Source: a virus
Strand: one strand, 5' to 3'
DNA: 39,795 bases
Virus record (IMG/VR): IMGVR_UViG_3300023500_000012
Coordinates: 1 to 39,795 of that record
In this document: in pieces, positions 1 through 39,795 of the stretch
Layout of the letters: each line of letters opens with the position of its first letter
Numbering within the stretch: position 1 is the first letter of the stretch
The notes under the pieces: model-generated
Told to the model about the DNA's origin: nothing
Seen by the model: only the letters and a program-made list of their open reading frames with translations
Databases searched by the model: none
Made by a program: the position numbers and the translations under genes

Positions 1-127
1 AAAGCACTCCCCTTGTGTTTCAGAAATTTTGCTCATTTCTTTTTCTCCTTGTTTATTCCAGAAAAGACTTTACATTCATTATATCATTTTTTCAAATCAC
101 TAACATCTTTGTCAACTTCTTCTGACA
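1..127. repeat. terminal direct repeat, left copy (circular overlap)
   Basis: Bases 1-127 are identical to 39669-39795, with no mismatch that I can find. The match runs exactly to both window ends, which is what a de Bruijn assembler leaves when it closes a circle with k = 127. The real genome is therefore a 39,668 bp circle (or a circularly permuted linear molecule). A true 127-bp direct terminal repeat cannot be excluded by sequence alone. The left copy includes the C-terminal end of the leftmost leftward gene (84-341). Confidence 0.95.
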
Positions 128-1877: not shown

Positions 1878-1990
1878 AAGCTCAAAAATCCCACGAAATG
1901 AAAACTTTCAATGCCTTGCTATTCATCAGATAACTGGTGACCGTCCCCGTGGAACGGTTGAGCGATAGTAAGGCACTGGAAGTTTTTTTG
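1878..1990 (+). ncRNA. structured leader RNA / attenuator-like hairpin upstream of replication gene
   Basis: Bases 1901-1922 pair with 1965-1986 to form a 22-position stem with two G-U wobbles and one mismatch. The 42-nt apical part holds a smaller hairpin, ACCGT (1940-1944) with ACGGT (1954-1958). Seven T follow the stem base (1983-1989), as in an intrinsic terminator. The transcript from PA would thus either end near 1990 as an RNA of about 110 nt or read into the replication gene. I cannot match it to a known RNA family. A GTG at 1937 is in frame with the downstream gene but lies inside the stem-loop and lacks coding character. Confidence 0.6.
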
Positions 1991-2005
1991 TTAATAAAAA
2001 CACAT

Positions 2006-4695: not shown

Positions 4696-5082
4696 ATGAG
4701 AGAAATTAGATTCAGAGCTTGGGATAAAGTATCAAGAAGAATGAGATGTGTAAATATTTTAAGATTTGATACTGATAATATCGTTCAATTATGGGCAGAA
4801 GAAAGCGATGAAATAGATTATGAAAATAGTGACATAGATAATAAAGGTTGGTATGAAAGATATGATAAAGAGGTAGTATTAATGCAATACACAGGACTAA
4901 AAGATAGGAGCGGATTGAAAGAAGTTTTTGAAGGTGATATTTTAGATAAAGAAGGGGTTATTAAAGGAAATATCTATGAAATGGACAAAAAAGAAACTGA
5001 TATTATCATTCAAGACTTTGGAGGAGAAAATTGGTGTTCAACCTACAAGCAAGCAATGGAGCGAGGATTGCGACACTCCTAG
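4696..5082 (+). CDS. YopX-family protein, altered C-terminus
   Basis: 128 residues. The opening [10 protein letters not shown] and the block [23 protein letters not shown] are diagnostic of the YopX family (small phage proteins of unknown function). Family members usually end shortly after a GNIYENPELL-like motif; here GNIYE occurs just nine residues or so after EGDIL, and then about 35 unrelated residues follow. The middle of the usual fold thus appears deleted and the tail replaced, exactly where the HNH gene (4976) overlaps in another frame. Probably a truncated YopX. Confidence 0.85.
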
Positions 5083-10706: not shown

Positions 10707-10729
10707 AAGGGGGGTTATTTCCCCCTTTT
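10707..10729 (+). terminator. intrinsic terminator at end of early region
   Basis: AAGGGGG (10707-10713) pairs with CCCCCTT (10721-10727) around a 7-nt loop, with TTTT at 10726-10729. It separates the early operon from the next promoter, whose -10 begins 12 bp later. Confidence 0.85.
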
Positions 10730-10738
10730 GTTCCACAG

Positions 10739-10747
10739 TGTTATAAT
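10739..10747 (+). promoter_or_regulatory. extended -10 promoter PD
   Basis: TGTTATAAT (TG 10739-10740, -10 TATAAT 10742-10747). No good -35 (the region overlaps the terminator hairpin), so it is an extended -10 type or needs an activator. The same AGTGNTATAAT element is used at 14020 and 16650. Confidence 0.65.
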
Positions 10748-10754
10748 TAAATAA

Positions 10755-10882
10755 GCTTATGAGTTTAATACTATTCTTTGGCAGTTCCGACAAGCATGTG
10801 GTAACAGGGAACTTCTATCATGGCGTAAGCTAAGATTTTAGCTCTAAGTTAACATTGAACTGTCAAATAATGCTATTAAATT
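10755..10882 (+). ncRNA. structured 5' leader RNA with alternative stems
   Basis: The leader between promoter PD and ATG 10883. AGTTTAATA (10762-10770) pairs with TATTAAATT (10874-10882), which abuts the start codon; TTTGGCAGTTC (10777-10787) pairs with GAACTGTCAAA (10857-10867); AGCTAA (10828-10833) with TTAGCT (10838-10843). Part of the second stem can instead pair locally: AGTTCC (10783-10788) with GGAACT (10808-10813), so two folds exclude each other. It resembles a riboswitch or autoregulatory leader in form; no known class recognised. Confidence 0.5.
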
Positions 10883-11017
10883 ATGCCTAGAAAGAAAACA
10901 ATAACAAAAGAAGATATTTTAACAAACCTTGCTACAAAATTTTCAGATGATAAAGACTTTCTAAAGAAAGTTAATAAACTAACTTTCGGACTTATCAGCG
11001 GTGAAGAGGATAAATAA
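10883..11017 (+). CDS. small protein (44 aa), first gene of the packaging operon
   Basis: ATG 10883 directly after the closing stem of the leader; TAA 11015-11017. Lys-rich (PRKKTITKEDILTNLATKF), helical. Function not recognised. The TAA is followed by TATG of the next gene. Confidence 0.55.
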   Translation: MPRKKTITKEDILTNLATKFSDDKDFLKKVNKLTFGLISGEEDK

Positions 11018-11426: not shown

Positions 11427-11589
11427 TATAAGAATTTTACCTACTGGTTGGTTTTGTCCTAGATGTCTAAGAATGAATGCACCAACTAATAACTTCTGTA
11501 CATGCAAAGAAAAATCGTTTACTCCAAAGATGATGATTAAAGTTTCTAAAGAAGAACCTATTGATCCATTTATTTCACAAATAATATGA
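11398..11589 (+). CDS. small zinc-ribbon protein (63 aa)
   Basis: ATG 11398 overlaps the end of the preceding gene. Contains TGWFCPRCLRMNAPTNNFCTC: two CxxC/CxC knuckles of a RanBP2/zinc-ribbon-like type. Stop TGA overlaps the deformylase start (ATGA). Possibly a nucleic-acid or ribosome-binding module; no further evidence. Confidence 0.6.
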   Translation: MNTSMLNQSNIRILPTGWFCPRCLRMNAPTNNFCTCKEKSFTPKMMIKVSKEEPIDPFISQII

Positions 11590-12134
11590 AAAAAGAAACA
11601 AAACTAATTATCATTGAAAAACATAAGGTAAGTAGTAGAGAAGTAGATTTAGAAAAAGATTTAGATAGAATAATGGAAGATGGAGCTATCATGTTTGATC
11701 TAGTTACTAAACCTATTGGTATATGGTCATCATCTTATGCACTAGCACACTCTCAGGTCACTAAAAAAGACCCTCTACGCTTCTTTGTTACTAAAGACGG
11801 TGATGCGGTAATAAATCCTGTTATAACACGTCATAGTGGATATACAGTGCCTCACCAAGAAGGGTGCTTAACGTTCCACGGCAAGAATGATGGTACAGTA
11901 AAAGTGCCTAGATGGAGAAAGATTGATGCTGAATGGTTTGAACTTCATGAGGACACTGGAAAGCCTTTCAGAGTTAGAATGAGCCTAGAGGGTAAGCCTG
12001 CAATGGTATTCCAGCATGAGATCCAACATATGGACGGAATCTATATCTACGACAAGAGAATGGATATACCACCAAGAATTAGAAGAAGCCCTATTGTACC
12101 TAAAAAGGAGGTTAATGTACCTAAAAAAGTATAG
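11586..12134 (+). CDS. def: peptide deformylase
   Basis: 182 residues. Removes the formyl group from nascent proteins. Motif II EGCL (Cys94 metal ligand) and motif III QHEIQHMDG (His144, Glu145, His148) are intact. Motif I (usually GxGLAAxQ) is diverged: ALAHSQV, residues 52-58, which keeps the Gln57 but loses the first Gly pair. The N-terminal 30 residues are charged. Phage deformylases are known in marine phages (established knowledge). Here it precedes the terminase genes in the packaging operon; ends at TAG. A TAG readthrough would run in frame into the next gene 22 bp on, but chance explains that. Confidence 0.9.
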   Translation: MKKETKLIIIEKHKVSSREVDLEKDLDRIMEDGAIMFDLVTKPIGIWSSSYALAHSQVTKKDPLRFFVTKDGDAVINPVITRHSGYTVPHQEGCLTFHGKNDGTVKVPRWRKIDAEWFELHEDTGKPFRVRMSLEGKPAMVFQHEIQHMDGIYIYDKRMDIPPRIRRSPIVPKKEVNVPKKV

Positions 12135-12155: not shown

Positions 12156-12548
12156 ATGTCTAGAGGAGCACCAAAAGGAAACAAATTTGCTAAAGGCAAC
12201 AAAGGCGGTAGAAGACCATCAGCATATAAGGAAAATGCTAATGCTGATTTTTTATTGAAAGTATGGGAAGGCAAGATCAGTCTTAAACAGGTCACTAAGA
12301 TGGTTGAGAGTAGAAAACATGGAGCAATGCATGCTTTTGCTTTAAAGTGCCTTACAGGTGATATGGACGCTATGAAGAAGCTTATAGATAAGCTATATGC
12401 TAATAAAACAAGTGTCGCTTTTGTAGATGAAACAGAAAGACCAAGCCCTGATGATCTTACTGCTGATGAAAGAAAAGAGATTGAAAGAGCTACAGCATTC
12501 TTAAAGCCAAGCTCAAATGTCAAAAAGAAAAGAAAAACTAAAACATAA
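12156..12548 (+). CDS. terS: terminase small subunit (putative)
   Basis: 130 residues immediately upstream of and overlapping the large terminase gene (32 bp). N-terminus RGAPKGNKFAKGNKGGRRPS is the typical glycine/lysine lead of phage terminase small-subunit-like proteins (the GAPKGNxxA pattern). The middle carries helices (VTKMVESRKHGAMHAFALK). C-terminal Lys tail. The role, DNA recognition for packaging, is inferred from position and the motif. Confidence 0.75.
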   Translation: MSRGAPKGNKFAKGNKGGRRPSAYKENANADFLLKVWEGKISLKQVTKMVESRKHGAMHAFALKCLTGDMDAMKKLIDKLYANKTSVAFVDETERPSPDDLTADERKEIERATAFLKPSSNVKKKRKTKT

Positions 12549-14010
12549 GCCTCTTGAATGGAGTGAGATATTGGCGAAAAAAGAATATCGTGTAGAAGCT
12601 GCACGACAAAGCTTATTGAACTTTATTTTGATATACCTAGCTGATTACGTTCAGTATGCTTTTGCAGACTTTCACGAGGATTTAGAGGCTGATCTATATG
12701 ATGACAAAGAGCTTAGAGTTGCCGCATTAATGTTTAGGGAATCAGCAAAGACGGTTTTTTGTTCCCTTGTATACCCTCTTTGGTCTATTTGTTATCAGAA
12801 AAAGAAGTTCATTATATATGGTAGTTCTGATGCTGATGCTGCTGCATCTTTGATGATGAACTTAATCAACCATTTACAAGATAATGCGTTAATAGCCAAT
12901 GATTTTGGTAGGTTATACTTTGAAGAAGGTGGAAGGTTTTCTAAATCAAAGAAGAAAACAGTTAAAGATTTTATTACAACTAATGGAATTCGTGTATTTG
13001 CTCGTGGTGTAGGGCAAAAGGTACGTGGGTATACTCATGGAAGGTTTAGACCTGACCTGTTTATTGGAGATGATCTTGAAGGTATTAAGAACATTACGAA
13101 TAAAGATAACAGGGATAAGGTAGATGATTGGCTTCATTCAGAAGTATTATCAGCTATTAACCAGATTACAGGTAAAGCTATTGTTTCAGGAAATATGCTT
13201 CATCGTGATTGTTTAATGGCTCGTTTAGATATTAAGTCAGATGTATGGTCCACTCATAAGGTGGCTATACATGATGATAAAGGTGAGATTGCTTGGAATG
13301 ATCGGTTTGTTTTTACAGATCAAGAGGCTTTAGAAGTTAATGCAAATCTACCTATAGAGAGATGGGTTGCTTCACTAGATACAATCAAAAGAGATAAGGG
13401 TAGTCATATATTTAACCAGGAGTATTTACTAAAACCACTGTCAGATGAAGATCAAGTCATTTTCCCTGATAATATTCAATGGTATGATAAAGATATAAAC
13501 TTCCTTGATGAAAAGAAATACCGTGTCATAATGGCTGTTGATCCTGCTATATCTCAAAAAGAAAGTGCTGATTATTCAGCGTGTACAGTATGGGCAAGAG
13601 AACATTCAACAGGTAATTTCTATTGTCTAGACTTCTTTAATGTAAAGATTACATTTCAGATCTTGAAAGAAAAGTCTCAGAAGATGGATATTTATTACAA
13701 GCCAGAGGGTGCTATCGTAGAGAAAGTTGCTGCTCAAGATTGGTTGATACAAGATCTTAGGAATGATTACAATATGATCATATACCCTGTTACTAGGCGT
13801 GCTGATAAGAGATTAAGGCTTGTATCCGTTAGTCATGTATTTGAACAAAACAAAGTATTCTTTAGACGGTCTCAACAGATTATAGTAGATCAGTTATTAG
13901 ACTTCGGTGCTGCAGCTCACGATGATTTAGTTGATACGGTGGTAGATTGCTTACAGGAACTATCAAGATCAAGTGGAACAAAAATGTTTAAAAACAATGG
14001 TATCATTTAG
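12517..14010 (+). CDS. terL: terminase large subunit
   Basis: 497 residues. ATPase: Walker-A-like FRESAKT (residues 73-79) and Walker B LFIGDDLE (181-188). Nuclease: VDPAISQKESADYSA (341-355, first Asp 342) and HDDLVDTVVD (468-477). This order is that of a complete TerL motor that packages DNA into the procapsid. Overlaps terS. Ends at TAG, which shows that TAG is a normal stop in late genes. A promoter starts only 7 bp after the stop. Confidence 0.97.
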   Translation: MSKRKEKLKHKPLEWSEILAKKEYRVEAARQSLLNFILIYLADYVQYAFADFHEDLEADLYDDKELRVAALMFRESAKTVFCSLVYPLWSICYQKKKFIIYGSSDADAAASLMMNLINHLQDNALIANDFGRLYFEEGGRFSKSKKKTVKDFITTNGIRVFARGVGQKVRGYTHGRFRPDLFIGDDLEGIKNITNKDNRDKVDDWLHSEVLSAINQITGKAIVSGNMLHRDCLMARLDIKSDVWSTHKVAIHDDKGEIAWNDRFVFTDQEALEVNANLPIERWVASLDTIKRDKGSHIFNQEYLLKPLSDEDQVIFPDNIQWYDKDINFLDEKKYRVIMAVDPAISQKESADYSACTVWAREHSTGNFYCLDFFNVKITFQILKEKSQKMDIYYKPEGAIVEKVAAQDWLIQDLRNDYNMIIYPVTRRADKRLRLVSVSHVFEQNKVFFRRSQQIIVDQLLDFGAAAHDDLVDTVVDCLQELSRSSGTKMFKNNGII

Positions 14011-34121: not shown

Positions 34122-37100
34122 ATGTCAACAAGAGTATCCCCATTAAACTCTACAGTGACAGATTGGAATGATTCTGATCTAACACTGTTCCACCGAGACC
34201 ATATTGGAAGTCTTGGAGCTGGAGTATTAAAAATAGATAGAGTTTTAAAAAGCCTTGAAAATAAAGGCTTTGAGTTAATGACAGGTTCAATTACTGCCGC
34301 AGGTTGGATTGGTAGTAACACATCATCATGGTATGGAACACCTGACGGAGCTACAGCCGTTCTTTCTTTTGCTACTGATAAGCAAAACAGTGGTTCAAAC
34401 TCATTAAAGATCGCCTGTACTGTAAATAATGGTTCACAAAAACCTCAAGCTAGACTAAGTGTTGCTTCTGGTAGTTATTCTGGTGGTGATTTTTATAAGC
34501 TTTTGAAAATTAAGCCTAATACATTGTATGAAATCTCAGGATATATTGAAGTATCTGGCGTATCCGCTGGGGCTTCTGGTGGGGCTTCTTTACGCGCTAT
34601 TACCGTAGACTCTGCAGGAGTTACTGTAGATGCAGAACAAGGTACTACGCTATTAACAGGAACAGCTACATTTGCAAAACAGACTTTACAATTTACGTCA
34701 GGAGCGACAGCAGAATATTTACAACTATTCCCTGCTTTATTAAATGAAACAGGTGATGCTTGGTTTGATGATCTAGAAGTTAAAGAAGTTGGAGATGACA
34801 TGAGGGTGGTTGAAGAAACAATCCCAACAAATACAGTTAAAGTTAAAACTGGTATTTCATATATTCAAATCACAAAGAACTCAACTGTTTATGCCCCTAG
34901 ATTTGAAACGACAGCAGAAGAAAGCATTGCTATACCTGCTAATAGTTCTGGTAATCCTCGTAAAGATATTATTATTGCTAAAGTTGATACTACCACTGAC
35001 CCAAATGCTACTTCTTCTAATATTGGTACGTTAGTAGTAGTACAAGGAACTGCAGCACCTGCACCTGTTGAGCCTGCAATACCTGCTAATTCAATTAAGC
35101 TGGCTACTGTAGACGTTGCTAATGGTCAAACTGTATTTACTAATTCAGATATAACTGATGGTCGTGAGGCATTAAGAATCCAGTCTATCGCATTAGAAAG
35201 CCCTGCTGGTAGTACAGACCTGGTAAACATGGAAGAAGTTAAAAAACCCTCAACTATTGCAAGTCGTGGTTCTGTTAAATTATCTGAAGAACCCCTAGAC
35301 CCTGAAAATCCTGTTGCCATGTCTGAAACAGATGCACGAATATTAACTGCAGCACAAAAAACTCAACTATTAGGAAGCCTTGATGCTGGCAATCAATTTA
35401 CTTTACCTGCTGGTGAAAACATTGATACATCTCTACAACCTAAAGTTGCTTATCTTGATCCTACTAACCAAAAAGTTAAGGTGGTGGATGGCTCAAATGA
35501 TACTCATGTGGCTAACTATATTGGGCATGTTATTTCTTCTGGTAATGGAGACACTGCCTTAGTTGGTTTTGATGCTGCTGATGATAATGATTATTATAGT
35601 GGGGCAAGCATAAGCGACCATCCAACATTAAACACAACACCAACTGCACTAAAAACAGCTTTTACATTGTCAAATCAAGCTGCACTAGCTGCATCAAACG
35701 ATACAGATGCTGCAGTAAATAGCTCAGTAAACTTTGAGTTTGCTTATCAGTTATTAGACTACGATGTGTCTAAGACTGGTTTTGCTGCTTCTACGATTCA
35801 TTTAATGGAGCTTTTGGTAGAATCAACTGCTGGTGGAGCAACACTTACAGATGGTTGGGACATGTATATTTGGGACGAAACAAACCTACAGTGGGTGTTA
35901 GCAGGAAGCTCTACAGTGGCTTTTGGTACTGACGAAGCTGTTGAAAGTAAAACATTAGCACTTAGAAATGAAGAAGTTGTTAAATACTTAGATGGCTCTG
36001 ATCATTTATTTGTTCTTATTAAATCAAAGGACACTTCTGATGGTTCAAACTCAATAAATGTTCAAACAGACTTCACTTCACTAACAGTATCTCAAGGTGT
36101 AAATGTTCAAAAAGGTGGAATTGTTCAAGGATATTCTGACCTAGTTGAGGGTAAATGGTATCACCCTGCTATTGCAGGAAGTTATGTATCAAAAACCATA
36201 TTTATTAATAGTAATCAAACCTCAATAAATAATATTGGTCTTTCAGTTGATGCAATAGCTTCTTCACTTGGAAATGATGACTTCTGGTCAGGTGAATTAA
36301 ACCAATTTACTATTCGTTTATCTAAAGTAAACGCTGGTCAAGATGTATATGGATATATAGTTCAGGGTAAAGAGGGTGATTTATTAATTAATGGTGGTGA
36401 TGCTGCTCAACTAACAAACGGATATAAGGTTATTCATAACTTTAAGATTCTTGCCAGCAGCATTTCAACCTCAATGGGTGATCATGTTGTTACCGTCAAC
36501 AAATACTTACCAAAGGGTAAGTGGTGGCTAGTACTAAGTACATCAAGCCAACCTAATAATGGAAGTAACTATATTAACTTACAGACATCAAACATAGGGG
36601 CATCTACTGGTGGTCATAATTTTGGAACAAGTTGGAGTACAGTAAATTCATTAAACCGTATTTATATGATTGCCACTCAAGGTGTTGATTATGTGGCTGA
36701 TGTTGATAGAAGTTTAGGTGATGTTGCTAGAACCAATAATAGTAATATTGCTTTACCTGTTGGTCGTGCAATTAGTGAGAATGAATTACTTGTTATTCAG
36801 CCTGAAAGATTACATTTCCAAGACAATACGGGTAACTTCATGAGTGGTGCTGCCAACTTTGCATTTGATACTTTGCTTGCTAGCCCTAATTATCTTGAGT
36901 TTGCTACAGGGTTTAAGCCAAGAAAGGTTCGTGTAATTGGAAGATTCCAAGACAATACAACAACAGACCCACAATCAGTTGTGTTTGAAGCGATATTTAC
37001 CATTGATAAAAAAGCTAATATCTGGAGTTCTATTTATTACTTGGGTTCTACAAGTAACCAAAACAACCCATCTGGTGGTGATGATGCCGCTCGTGTATTC

Positions 37101-39668: not shown

Positions 39669-39795
39669 AAAGCACTCCCCTTGTGTTTCAGAAATTTTGC
39701 TCATTTCTTTTTCTCCTTGTTTATTCCAGAAAAGACTTTACATTCATTATATCATTTTTTCAAATCACTAACATCTTTGTCAACTTCTTCTGACA
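39669..39795. repeat. terminal direct repeat, right copy (circular overlap)
   Basis: Second copy of bases 1-127; it should be removed when the genome is circularised. Numbering from 39668 back to 1 makes the convergent gap between the lysozyme gene (end 39579) and the leftward operon (end 84) only about 170 nt. Confidence 0.95.

What the first reader, a model, noticed from the sequence alone, without database searches (positions are those of the whole stretch)
10739..10882. Two-state leader in front of the packaging operon
A long-range 11-bp stem (10777-10787/10857-10867) and a stem touching the start codon (10762-10770/10874-10882) compete with a local hairpin (10783-10788/10808-10813). Such exclusive folds are the hallmark of riboswitches or protein-binding leaders.
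Basis: partly seen in the sequence, partly recalled or inferred. Interest (0 to 1): 0.75.

Follow-up and report, generated by a model that had tools for sequence, protein, structure and literature searches.

The report
Phage leader copies Patescibacteria non-coding RNA
The folded RNA in front of this virus's late genes is real and belongs to a previously unlisted family of rod-shaped non-coding RNAs that one class of tiny bacteria (Patescibacteria) mostly carries as a single gene with its own promoter and terminator; the virus carries a version of that bacterial RNA at the start of its late messenger.

Summary
The three stems exist at the stated coordinates. But the two long stems are one continuous helix (P1, 24 of 26 pairs, 10762-10787/10857-10882). 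Only the 6-bp local hairpin competes with it; that hairpin has zero equilibrium probability and is not conserved, so the 'two-state' reading is not supported. A related phage has the same element in front of the same RusA-like gene, with six compensatory changes in P1. A covariance model from the two phages found a copy in a Patescibacteria genome. An updated model then found it in 237 of 381 genomes of that genome's class, nearly always once. The host copies inspected are free-standing intergenic RNAs, generally with a sigma-70 promoter and an intrinsic terminator, and conserved neighbours. 22 of 26 pairs covary and a 10-nt bulge CGACAAGCAU is nearly invariant. A model built only from host copies finds the window leader (35.4 bits) and the related phage's, and nothing else in 1.16 Mb. 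No Rfam 15 family matches; I found no description in the searched literature. So this is a new RNA family, carried by phages as the 5' end of the late mRNA. Its function is inferred: most likely it engages the bacterial RNA's partner, in trans or in cis. A 6S-like role is possible but unproven.

The parts
10709..10729 (+). intrinsic-terminator-like hairpin plus T run closing the upstream (early) gene block
   Evidence: 2 terminator-like sites against 0.2 expected
10739..10747 (+). extended -10 promoter TGTTATAAT (no good -35); predicted transcription start about 10754
   Evidence: read directly from the sequence; the start site is inferred
10762..10787 (+).
   Evidence: covariation
10788..10797 (+). 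10-nt 5' bulge CGACAAGCAU, the nearly invariant motif of the family
   Evidence: alignment of 32 members
10798..10805 (+). P2 5' side (GUG 10798-10800, UAAC 10802-10805)
10822..10831 (+). apical hairpin P3 GGC-GUAA-GCU; GGC/GCU is invariant or compensated in the family
10848..10855 (+). P2 3' side (GUUA 10848-10851, CAU 10853-10855)
10857..10882 (+). P1 3' arm, ending directly before the ATG at 10883
10776..10868 (+). core matched by the host-only covariance model R3 (35.4 bits, E 1.5e-6 for the window)
10883..11017 (+). 44-aa ORF directly after P1; not detected in the related phage G291
11019..11426 (+). RusA-like protein; its homologue follows the same RNA directly in the related phage L198/G291
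11586..14010 (+). late genes: peptide deformylase (11586-12134), probable terminase small subunit (12156-12548), terminase large subunit (12517-14010)

Best explanation
The leader is a phage-borne member of a new family of rod-shaped non-coding RNAs. In one class of Patescibacteria the family is a free-standing gene, nearly always single-copy. SHOWN: same fold (P1 of about 20-27 bp, near-invariant 10-nt 5' bulge CGACAAGCAU, P2, apical GGC-tetraloop-GCU), extensive covariation, and independent mutual detection by covariance models. INFERRED: the phage (or its ancestor) took the gene from its Patescibacteria host and placed it between the late promoter and the first late gene, without the terminator, so that every late transcript begins with this RNA. 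INFERRED: the RNA works through the partner that the host RNA has (most likely a protein such as RNA polymerase, a ribosome-linked factor or an RNA chaperone) that recognises the bulge next to the long helix. Made in quantity late in infection, it would copy or titrate the host RNA's action in trans, possibly after cleavage from the mRNA. Because P1 covers the translation-initiation region of the first late gene, the same domain could also delay translation of that gene.
For: Second phage G291 (portal 52%, capsid 72% identical) has the element in front of the same RusA-like gene, with 19 of 21 P1 pairs kept and 6 pairs changed on both sides. Model R1 (two phages) hit one Patescibacteria genome, G234 (E 9e-5), whose P1 has a quite different sequence and still pairs 12 of 12. 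R2 hit 237 of 381 genomes of that class. In the 32-member alignment 97.8% of cells are paired, 22 of 26 pairs change on both sides and 0 of 500 shuffles reach this. Host-only model R3 finds exactly the two phage leaders in 1.16 Mb of phage and prophage DNA and 28 of 370 genomes across the phylum (E 1.8e-7 or better), and none of 90 genomes of another phylum. In the host copies printed, a sigma-70-like promoter lies tens of bases to about 100 bases upstream in most, and an intrinsic terminator follows in nearly all, in some made by P1 plus a U run. Neighbours recur: a convergent VanW-like gene in nearly all of the 17 loci read, with NusB-type or ClpP genes on the other side in many.
Against: No expression data; function and partner are unknown. 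Nothing shows that the phage RNA is released from the mRNA or acts in trans. The phage copies diverge at conserved positions (GUG for GGG after the bulge; L198 has GUGU at the end of the bulge), so the phage RNA might have lost the host function. Direction of transfer and host are not shown: capsid relatives occur in only 2 of 286 class genomes.
Confidence: 0.5

Rival explanations
1. Purely cis-acting regulatory leader: the phage reuses the host RNA's binding domain as an operator on its late mRNA. The long helix hides the initiation region of the first late gene, and binding of the host factor or ligand to the bulge opens or locks it.
For: In both phages P1 abuts the start codon, and in L198 the ATG itself pairs. 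Both copies lack a host-type terminator and run straight into the coding region. Most genes of this phage lack a Shine-Dalgarno sequence, so structure at the start could matter.
Against: P1 length in the phage (24 pairs) is what host copies have anyway (21-27 pairs wherever the script could trace P1), so reaching the ATG need not be an adaptation. Host copies have no gene in cis to regulate: a separate terminator usually follows and the next gene is convergent. The proposed alternative hairpin is not conserved.
Confidence: 0.27
2. The family is the 6S RNA (RNA-polymerase-binding decoy) of this Patescibacteria class, too divergent for the Rfam model, and the phage carries its own 6S-like RNA.
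For: Mostly one copy per genome, rod shape with a long closing stem and an interrupted middle, own promoter and terminator, roughly 150-200 nt. RF00013 finds no above-cutoff 6S in 115 genomes of the class, while it rings in 5 of 14 control genomes.
Against: No sub-threshold 6S similarity in any member scanned. 6S has a large two-sided central bubble and little sequence conservation; here the bulge is one-sided (10 nt against 1 nt) and nearly invariant. One class genome without an R2 match has a weak separate 6S-like hit (G475, 25.4 bits).
Confidence: 0.2
3. Variant hatchet self-cleaving ribozyme.
For: cmscan's only end-to-end ribozyme match is Hatchet (15.5 bits). The window shares GACAAGCATGTGG with canonical hatchets in L021 and L024.
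Against: Far below the gathering score of 51. The conserved 3' half (GUGCAGACGUUAAAAUC) is absent. The family fold has a 12-26-bp P1 enclosing the motif, not a hatchet P1 hairpin. Host members give no hatchet hit.
Confidence: 0.01
4. DNA-level inverted repeat (pac/cos or regulator-binding site), or a translated leader peptide (24-aa ORF 10759-10833).
For: Inverted repeat beside terminase genes; short ORFs in both phages happen to share a frame.
Against: Covariation with G.U pairs, a conserved single-stranded bulge and promoter/terminator framing in bacteria show RNA. No reading frame is open across the family (40, 40 and 32 stops in the three frames of 35 members).
Confidence: 0.02

Closest known systems
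6S RNA (RF00013, ssrS)
   Same: Long closing stem, rod shape with an interrupted middle, usually single gene with own promoter and terminator, broadly kept within its clade
   Different: No sequence or covariance-model similarity; one-sided 10-nt near-invariant bulge instead of a two-sided bubble; RNA polymerase binding untested
Hatchet ribozyme (RF02678; PMC4604424)
   Same: Shares the string GACAAGCAUGUGG; hatchets also occur in phage/metagenomic DNA
   Different: Lacks the conserved 3' strand and the P1 hairpin topology; 15.5 bits against a gathering score of 51
Riboswitches and protein-binding leaders (for example PyrR-type attenuators)
   Same: In the phages, sits between promoter and first gene of an operon, next to the start codon
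   Different: Host members are stand-alone RNAs with terminators; no conserved alternative fold; no conserved downstream gene in cis
Bacterial SRP RNA (4.5S/ffs)
   Same: Rod-like, usually single-copy bacterial RNA
   Different: No GGAA-type loop with the SRP internal loops; no SRP family match in the member scans
Phage-encoded copies of host RNAs (tRNAs, tmRNA), from own knowledge
   Same: Phage carries a version of a cellular non-coding RNA
   Different: Here the cellular RNA itself is undescribed and the phage copy is the 5' end of the late mRNA

Membership tests
New family found here (Patescibacteria rod RNA with CGACAAGCAU bulge) | P1/P2/P3 fold supported by covariation | tested here: met
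   host-only model R3 hits the window at 35.4 bits
New family found here (Patescibacteria rod RNA with CGACAAGCAU bulge) | near-invariant bulge CGACAAGCAU | tested here: met
   window 10788-10797 identical; L198 differs at two bases
New family found here (Patescibacteria rod RNA with CGACAAGCAU bulge) | own promoter upstream | tested here: met
   TGTTATAAT at 10739-10747; TTGACA...TAtNAT-like promoters in most host copies printed; by sequence only
New family found here (Patescibacteria rod RNA with CGACAAGCAU bulge) | intrinsic terminator directly after the RNA | tested here: not met
   present in nearly all host copies printed, absent in the window and L198, which run into the coding region; a difference of context, not of the RNA core
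Hatchet ribozyme RF02678 | score above gathering threshold | tested here: not met
   15.5 against 51 bits
Hatchet ribozyme RF02678 | conserved linker and P2-P3 bulge nucleotides, P1 hairpin next to the cleavage site | tested here: not met
   3' strand GUGCAGACGUUAAAAUC absent; P1 is a long-range helix (PMC4604424)
6S RNA RF00013 | match to the 6S covariance model | tested here: not met
6S RNA RF00013 | binds sigma-70 RNA polymerase and templates pRNA | not testable with these tools
   needs biochemistry
Riboswitch / two-state leader | conserved, mutually exclusive alternative helices | tested here: not met
   local hairpin pairs in 33.3% of cells, the same as shuffles
Riboswitch / two-state leader | ligand or protein binding changes gene expression | not testable with these tools
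   needs in-line probing, pull-down or reporters
Any Rfam 15 family | gathering-score match | tested here: not met
   window none; L338 and eight further host loci none at the RNA

The most novel reading that the evidence does not exclude
A conserved, probably housekeeping non-coding RNA of a whole class of Patescibacteria, unknown until now, has been captured by their phages and fused to the front of the late messenger, so that the phage makes its own version of a host regulatory RNA exactly when it switches to late gene expression.
Probability: 0.6. Interest if true: 0.9.

Novelty: categorically new. Interest (0 to 1): 0.8.

Why it matters
Patescibacteria make up a large part of bacterial diversity, are mostly uncultured and have minimal genomes, so an RNA kept mostly as a single gene in at least 62% of sampled genomes of a class is probably important; it is absent from Rfam 15 and I found no description of it. 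Phage copies suggest that it touches something phages need to control, and they give a handle for finding the partner. The RNA may also serve as a marker linking orphan phages to Patescibacteria hosts. The finding makes a concrete open question testable: what does this RNA bind?

Tried and rejected
Direct DNA similarity in phages and plasmids: nothing. TerL relatives at about 30% identity: too distant to carry the leader. Hatchet pattern scan: canonical hatchets found, but the window lacks their 3' half. Leader-peptide idea: no frame open across the family. Two-state idea: local hairpin not conserved. G294 (capsid 57% identical) has the RusA-like gene but no leader match. A window-wide z-score scan showed that minimum free energy alone would not have singled this leader out (the first attempt, timed out). 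Alignment of the early-operon RNAs of three phages failed with the coordinates used. Literature searches found no description of such an RNA in Patescibacteria.

Full report
OBSERVATION. The three stems are present exactly as listed. The 11-bp stem 10777-10787/10857-10867 and the 9-bp stem 10762-10770/10874-10882 do not compete; they are parts of a single helix of 26 positions with 24 pairs. It is the best long-range helix in the window, equalled in Watson-Crick pairs by 1 of 30 shuffled genomes. Only the 6-bp hairpin 10783-10788/10808-10813 competes. At equilibrium it has probability 0.0; it is the minimum-energy fold only while the 3' arm of P1 has not yet been transcribed. Upstream are an intrinsic-terminator-like hairpin (10709-10729) and an extended -10 promoter TGTTATAAT (10739-10747).

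THE PHAGE. The window is a complete-looking 39.8-kb siphophage-like genome with a 127-bp terminal repeat. Late genes after the leader are a 44-aa ORF, a RusA-like protein, a peptide deformylase, a probable terminase small subunit, the terminase large subunit, portal and capsid. Most genes lack Shine-Dalgarno sequences.

FIRST HOMOLOGUE. The portal query brought L198 (IMGVR_UViG_3300025018_000062, record G291). Directly in front of its RusA-like gene stands CAAGAGACTGACTGTTC-CGACAAGTGTGTG...GGCTTCAGCTAGGATC...GAACAGTCAATCTCTTTTATG. Against the window, 19 of 21 P1 pairs are kept and six pairs change on both sides. In G291 this helix and one at the head of the early operon are the two best long-range helices of the whole genome, as in the window.

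THE FAMILY. A covariance model of the two phage leaders (R1) had one hit in 380 Patescibacteria genomes (G234, 37.8 bits, E 9e-5 per genome). There P1 reads CAACTGTGTCCA/TGGGCACAGTTG, a quite different sequence that pairs 12 of 12, with the same CGACAAGCATG and GGC-NNNN-GCT. A three-member model (R2) then matched 237 of 381 genomes of that genome's class, nearly always once and sometimes as a tandem pair. In a 32-member alignment 97.8% of cells are paired, 22 of 26 pairs carry changes on both sides and the covariation score is 0.53 against 0.17 in shuffles (0 of 500); sliding the partner by one column drops pairing to 44-47%. The host-only alignment gives the same result. The members were fitted to the model, so absolute pairing is somewhat flattering, but P1 sequences that differ while pairing cannot be produced by fitting.

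INDEPENDENT TEST. Model R3, built from 33 host copies without any phage sequence (though aligned through R2, which includes them), finds the window leader at 35.4 bits (E 1.5e-6 in the window). Over 1.16 Mb of 94 phage, prophage and Patescibacteria sources it finds only G291 (54.9 bits) and the window. Across the phylum it hits 28 of 370 genomes with E of 1.8e-7 or better, and in 90 genomes of another phylum none. Named genomes with a match are two Falkowbacteria, a Parcubacteria bin and an unclassified Patescibacteria bin. Nomura-, Yanofsky-, Woese-, Roizman-, Shapiro-, Gracili- and Peregrinibacteria genomes did not match. From own knowledge this points to the class Patescibacteriia (ABY1). 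The window's phage probably infects that class; this is inferred, since capsid relatives were seen in only 2 of 286 class genomes.

ANATOMY IN HOSTS. The copies lie between genes. In most of the 30 printed, a sigma-70-like promoter (TTGACA...TAtNAT) lies upstream, often followed by an A-rich 5' tail, then the rod; a few printed stretches do not reach or show a promoter. An intrinsic terminator follows in nearly all, in some made by P1 with a U run. P1 has 21-27 pairs wherever the script traced it (it failed on L360, L365 and L367-L369), so the phage P1 has the length typical of the family. In nearly all of the 17 loci read a VanW-like gene points towards the RNA from downstream, and NusB-type or ClpP genes recur upstream (gene names from reading the sequences). 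No reading frame is conserved. No Rfam family matches the window, L338 or eight further host loci at the RNA.

WHAT IT DOES. Shown: a structured RNA family, mostly single-copy in a bacterial class, also present in two phages between a TATAAT promoter and the RusA-like late gene. Inferred: the near-invariant bulge beside a long helix is a recognition site for a host partner, and the phage copy engages that partner, in trans (my preference) or in cis on the late mRNA. A 6S-like RNA-polymerase role fits gene organisation and size, and RF00013 has no above-cutoff match in 115 genomes of the class, but there is no sequence similarity and the one-sided bulge is unlike 6S; I do not file it as 6S. It is not a hatchet ribozyme: the shared GACAAGCAUGUGG string is striking, but the rest of the hatchet core is missing.

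NOVELTY. No family in Rfam 15 and no paper in the searched library describes it. I rate the RNA family as new. If biochemistry shows 6S function, it would become a new variant of a known kind.

Noticed in passing
window 1890-1992 (+): Early-operon leader: strong promoter TTTACA-17-TATAAT (1843-1871), then a three-way-junction RNA (z -6.1) closed by a long stem ending in seven U, then an HTH_36 replication-type gene. G291 has a similar element (oriented 4837-4925) and G294 a long-helix element at 36363-36468; no Rfam match.
   Followed up: partly
G343, G474, G515, G563: Some host genomes carry two copies of the new RNA in tandem, about 200-230 bp apart.
   Followed up: no
window, all genes: Most genes lack Shine-Dalgarno sequences and are preceded by A/T-rich stretches such as AATAAAATAAT-ATG, suggesting a host with non-SD initiation.
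   Followed up: partly
L116 (IMGVR_UViG_3300009408_000055): Near-identical relative of this phage (capsid 100% identical), but its contig starts near window 15940 and so lacks the leader.
   Followed up: yes
L016, L018, L021, L024, L029: Sequences with the canonical hatchet-ribozyme core found in IMG/VR phage contigs of up to about 100 kb; not tested for activity or against the Rfam cutoff.
   Followed up: no
L373 (G475): The only 6S-like match (25.4 bits, below cutoff) in 115 genomes of the class, in a genome without an R2 match.
   Followed up: partly
window 11586-12134: Phage-encoded peptide deformylase in the late block, conserved in G291 (57% identity).
   Followed up: no
window 1-127 and 39669-39795: 127-bp direct terminal repeat, as expected for a complete circularly assembled genome.
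   Followed up: no
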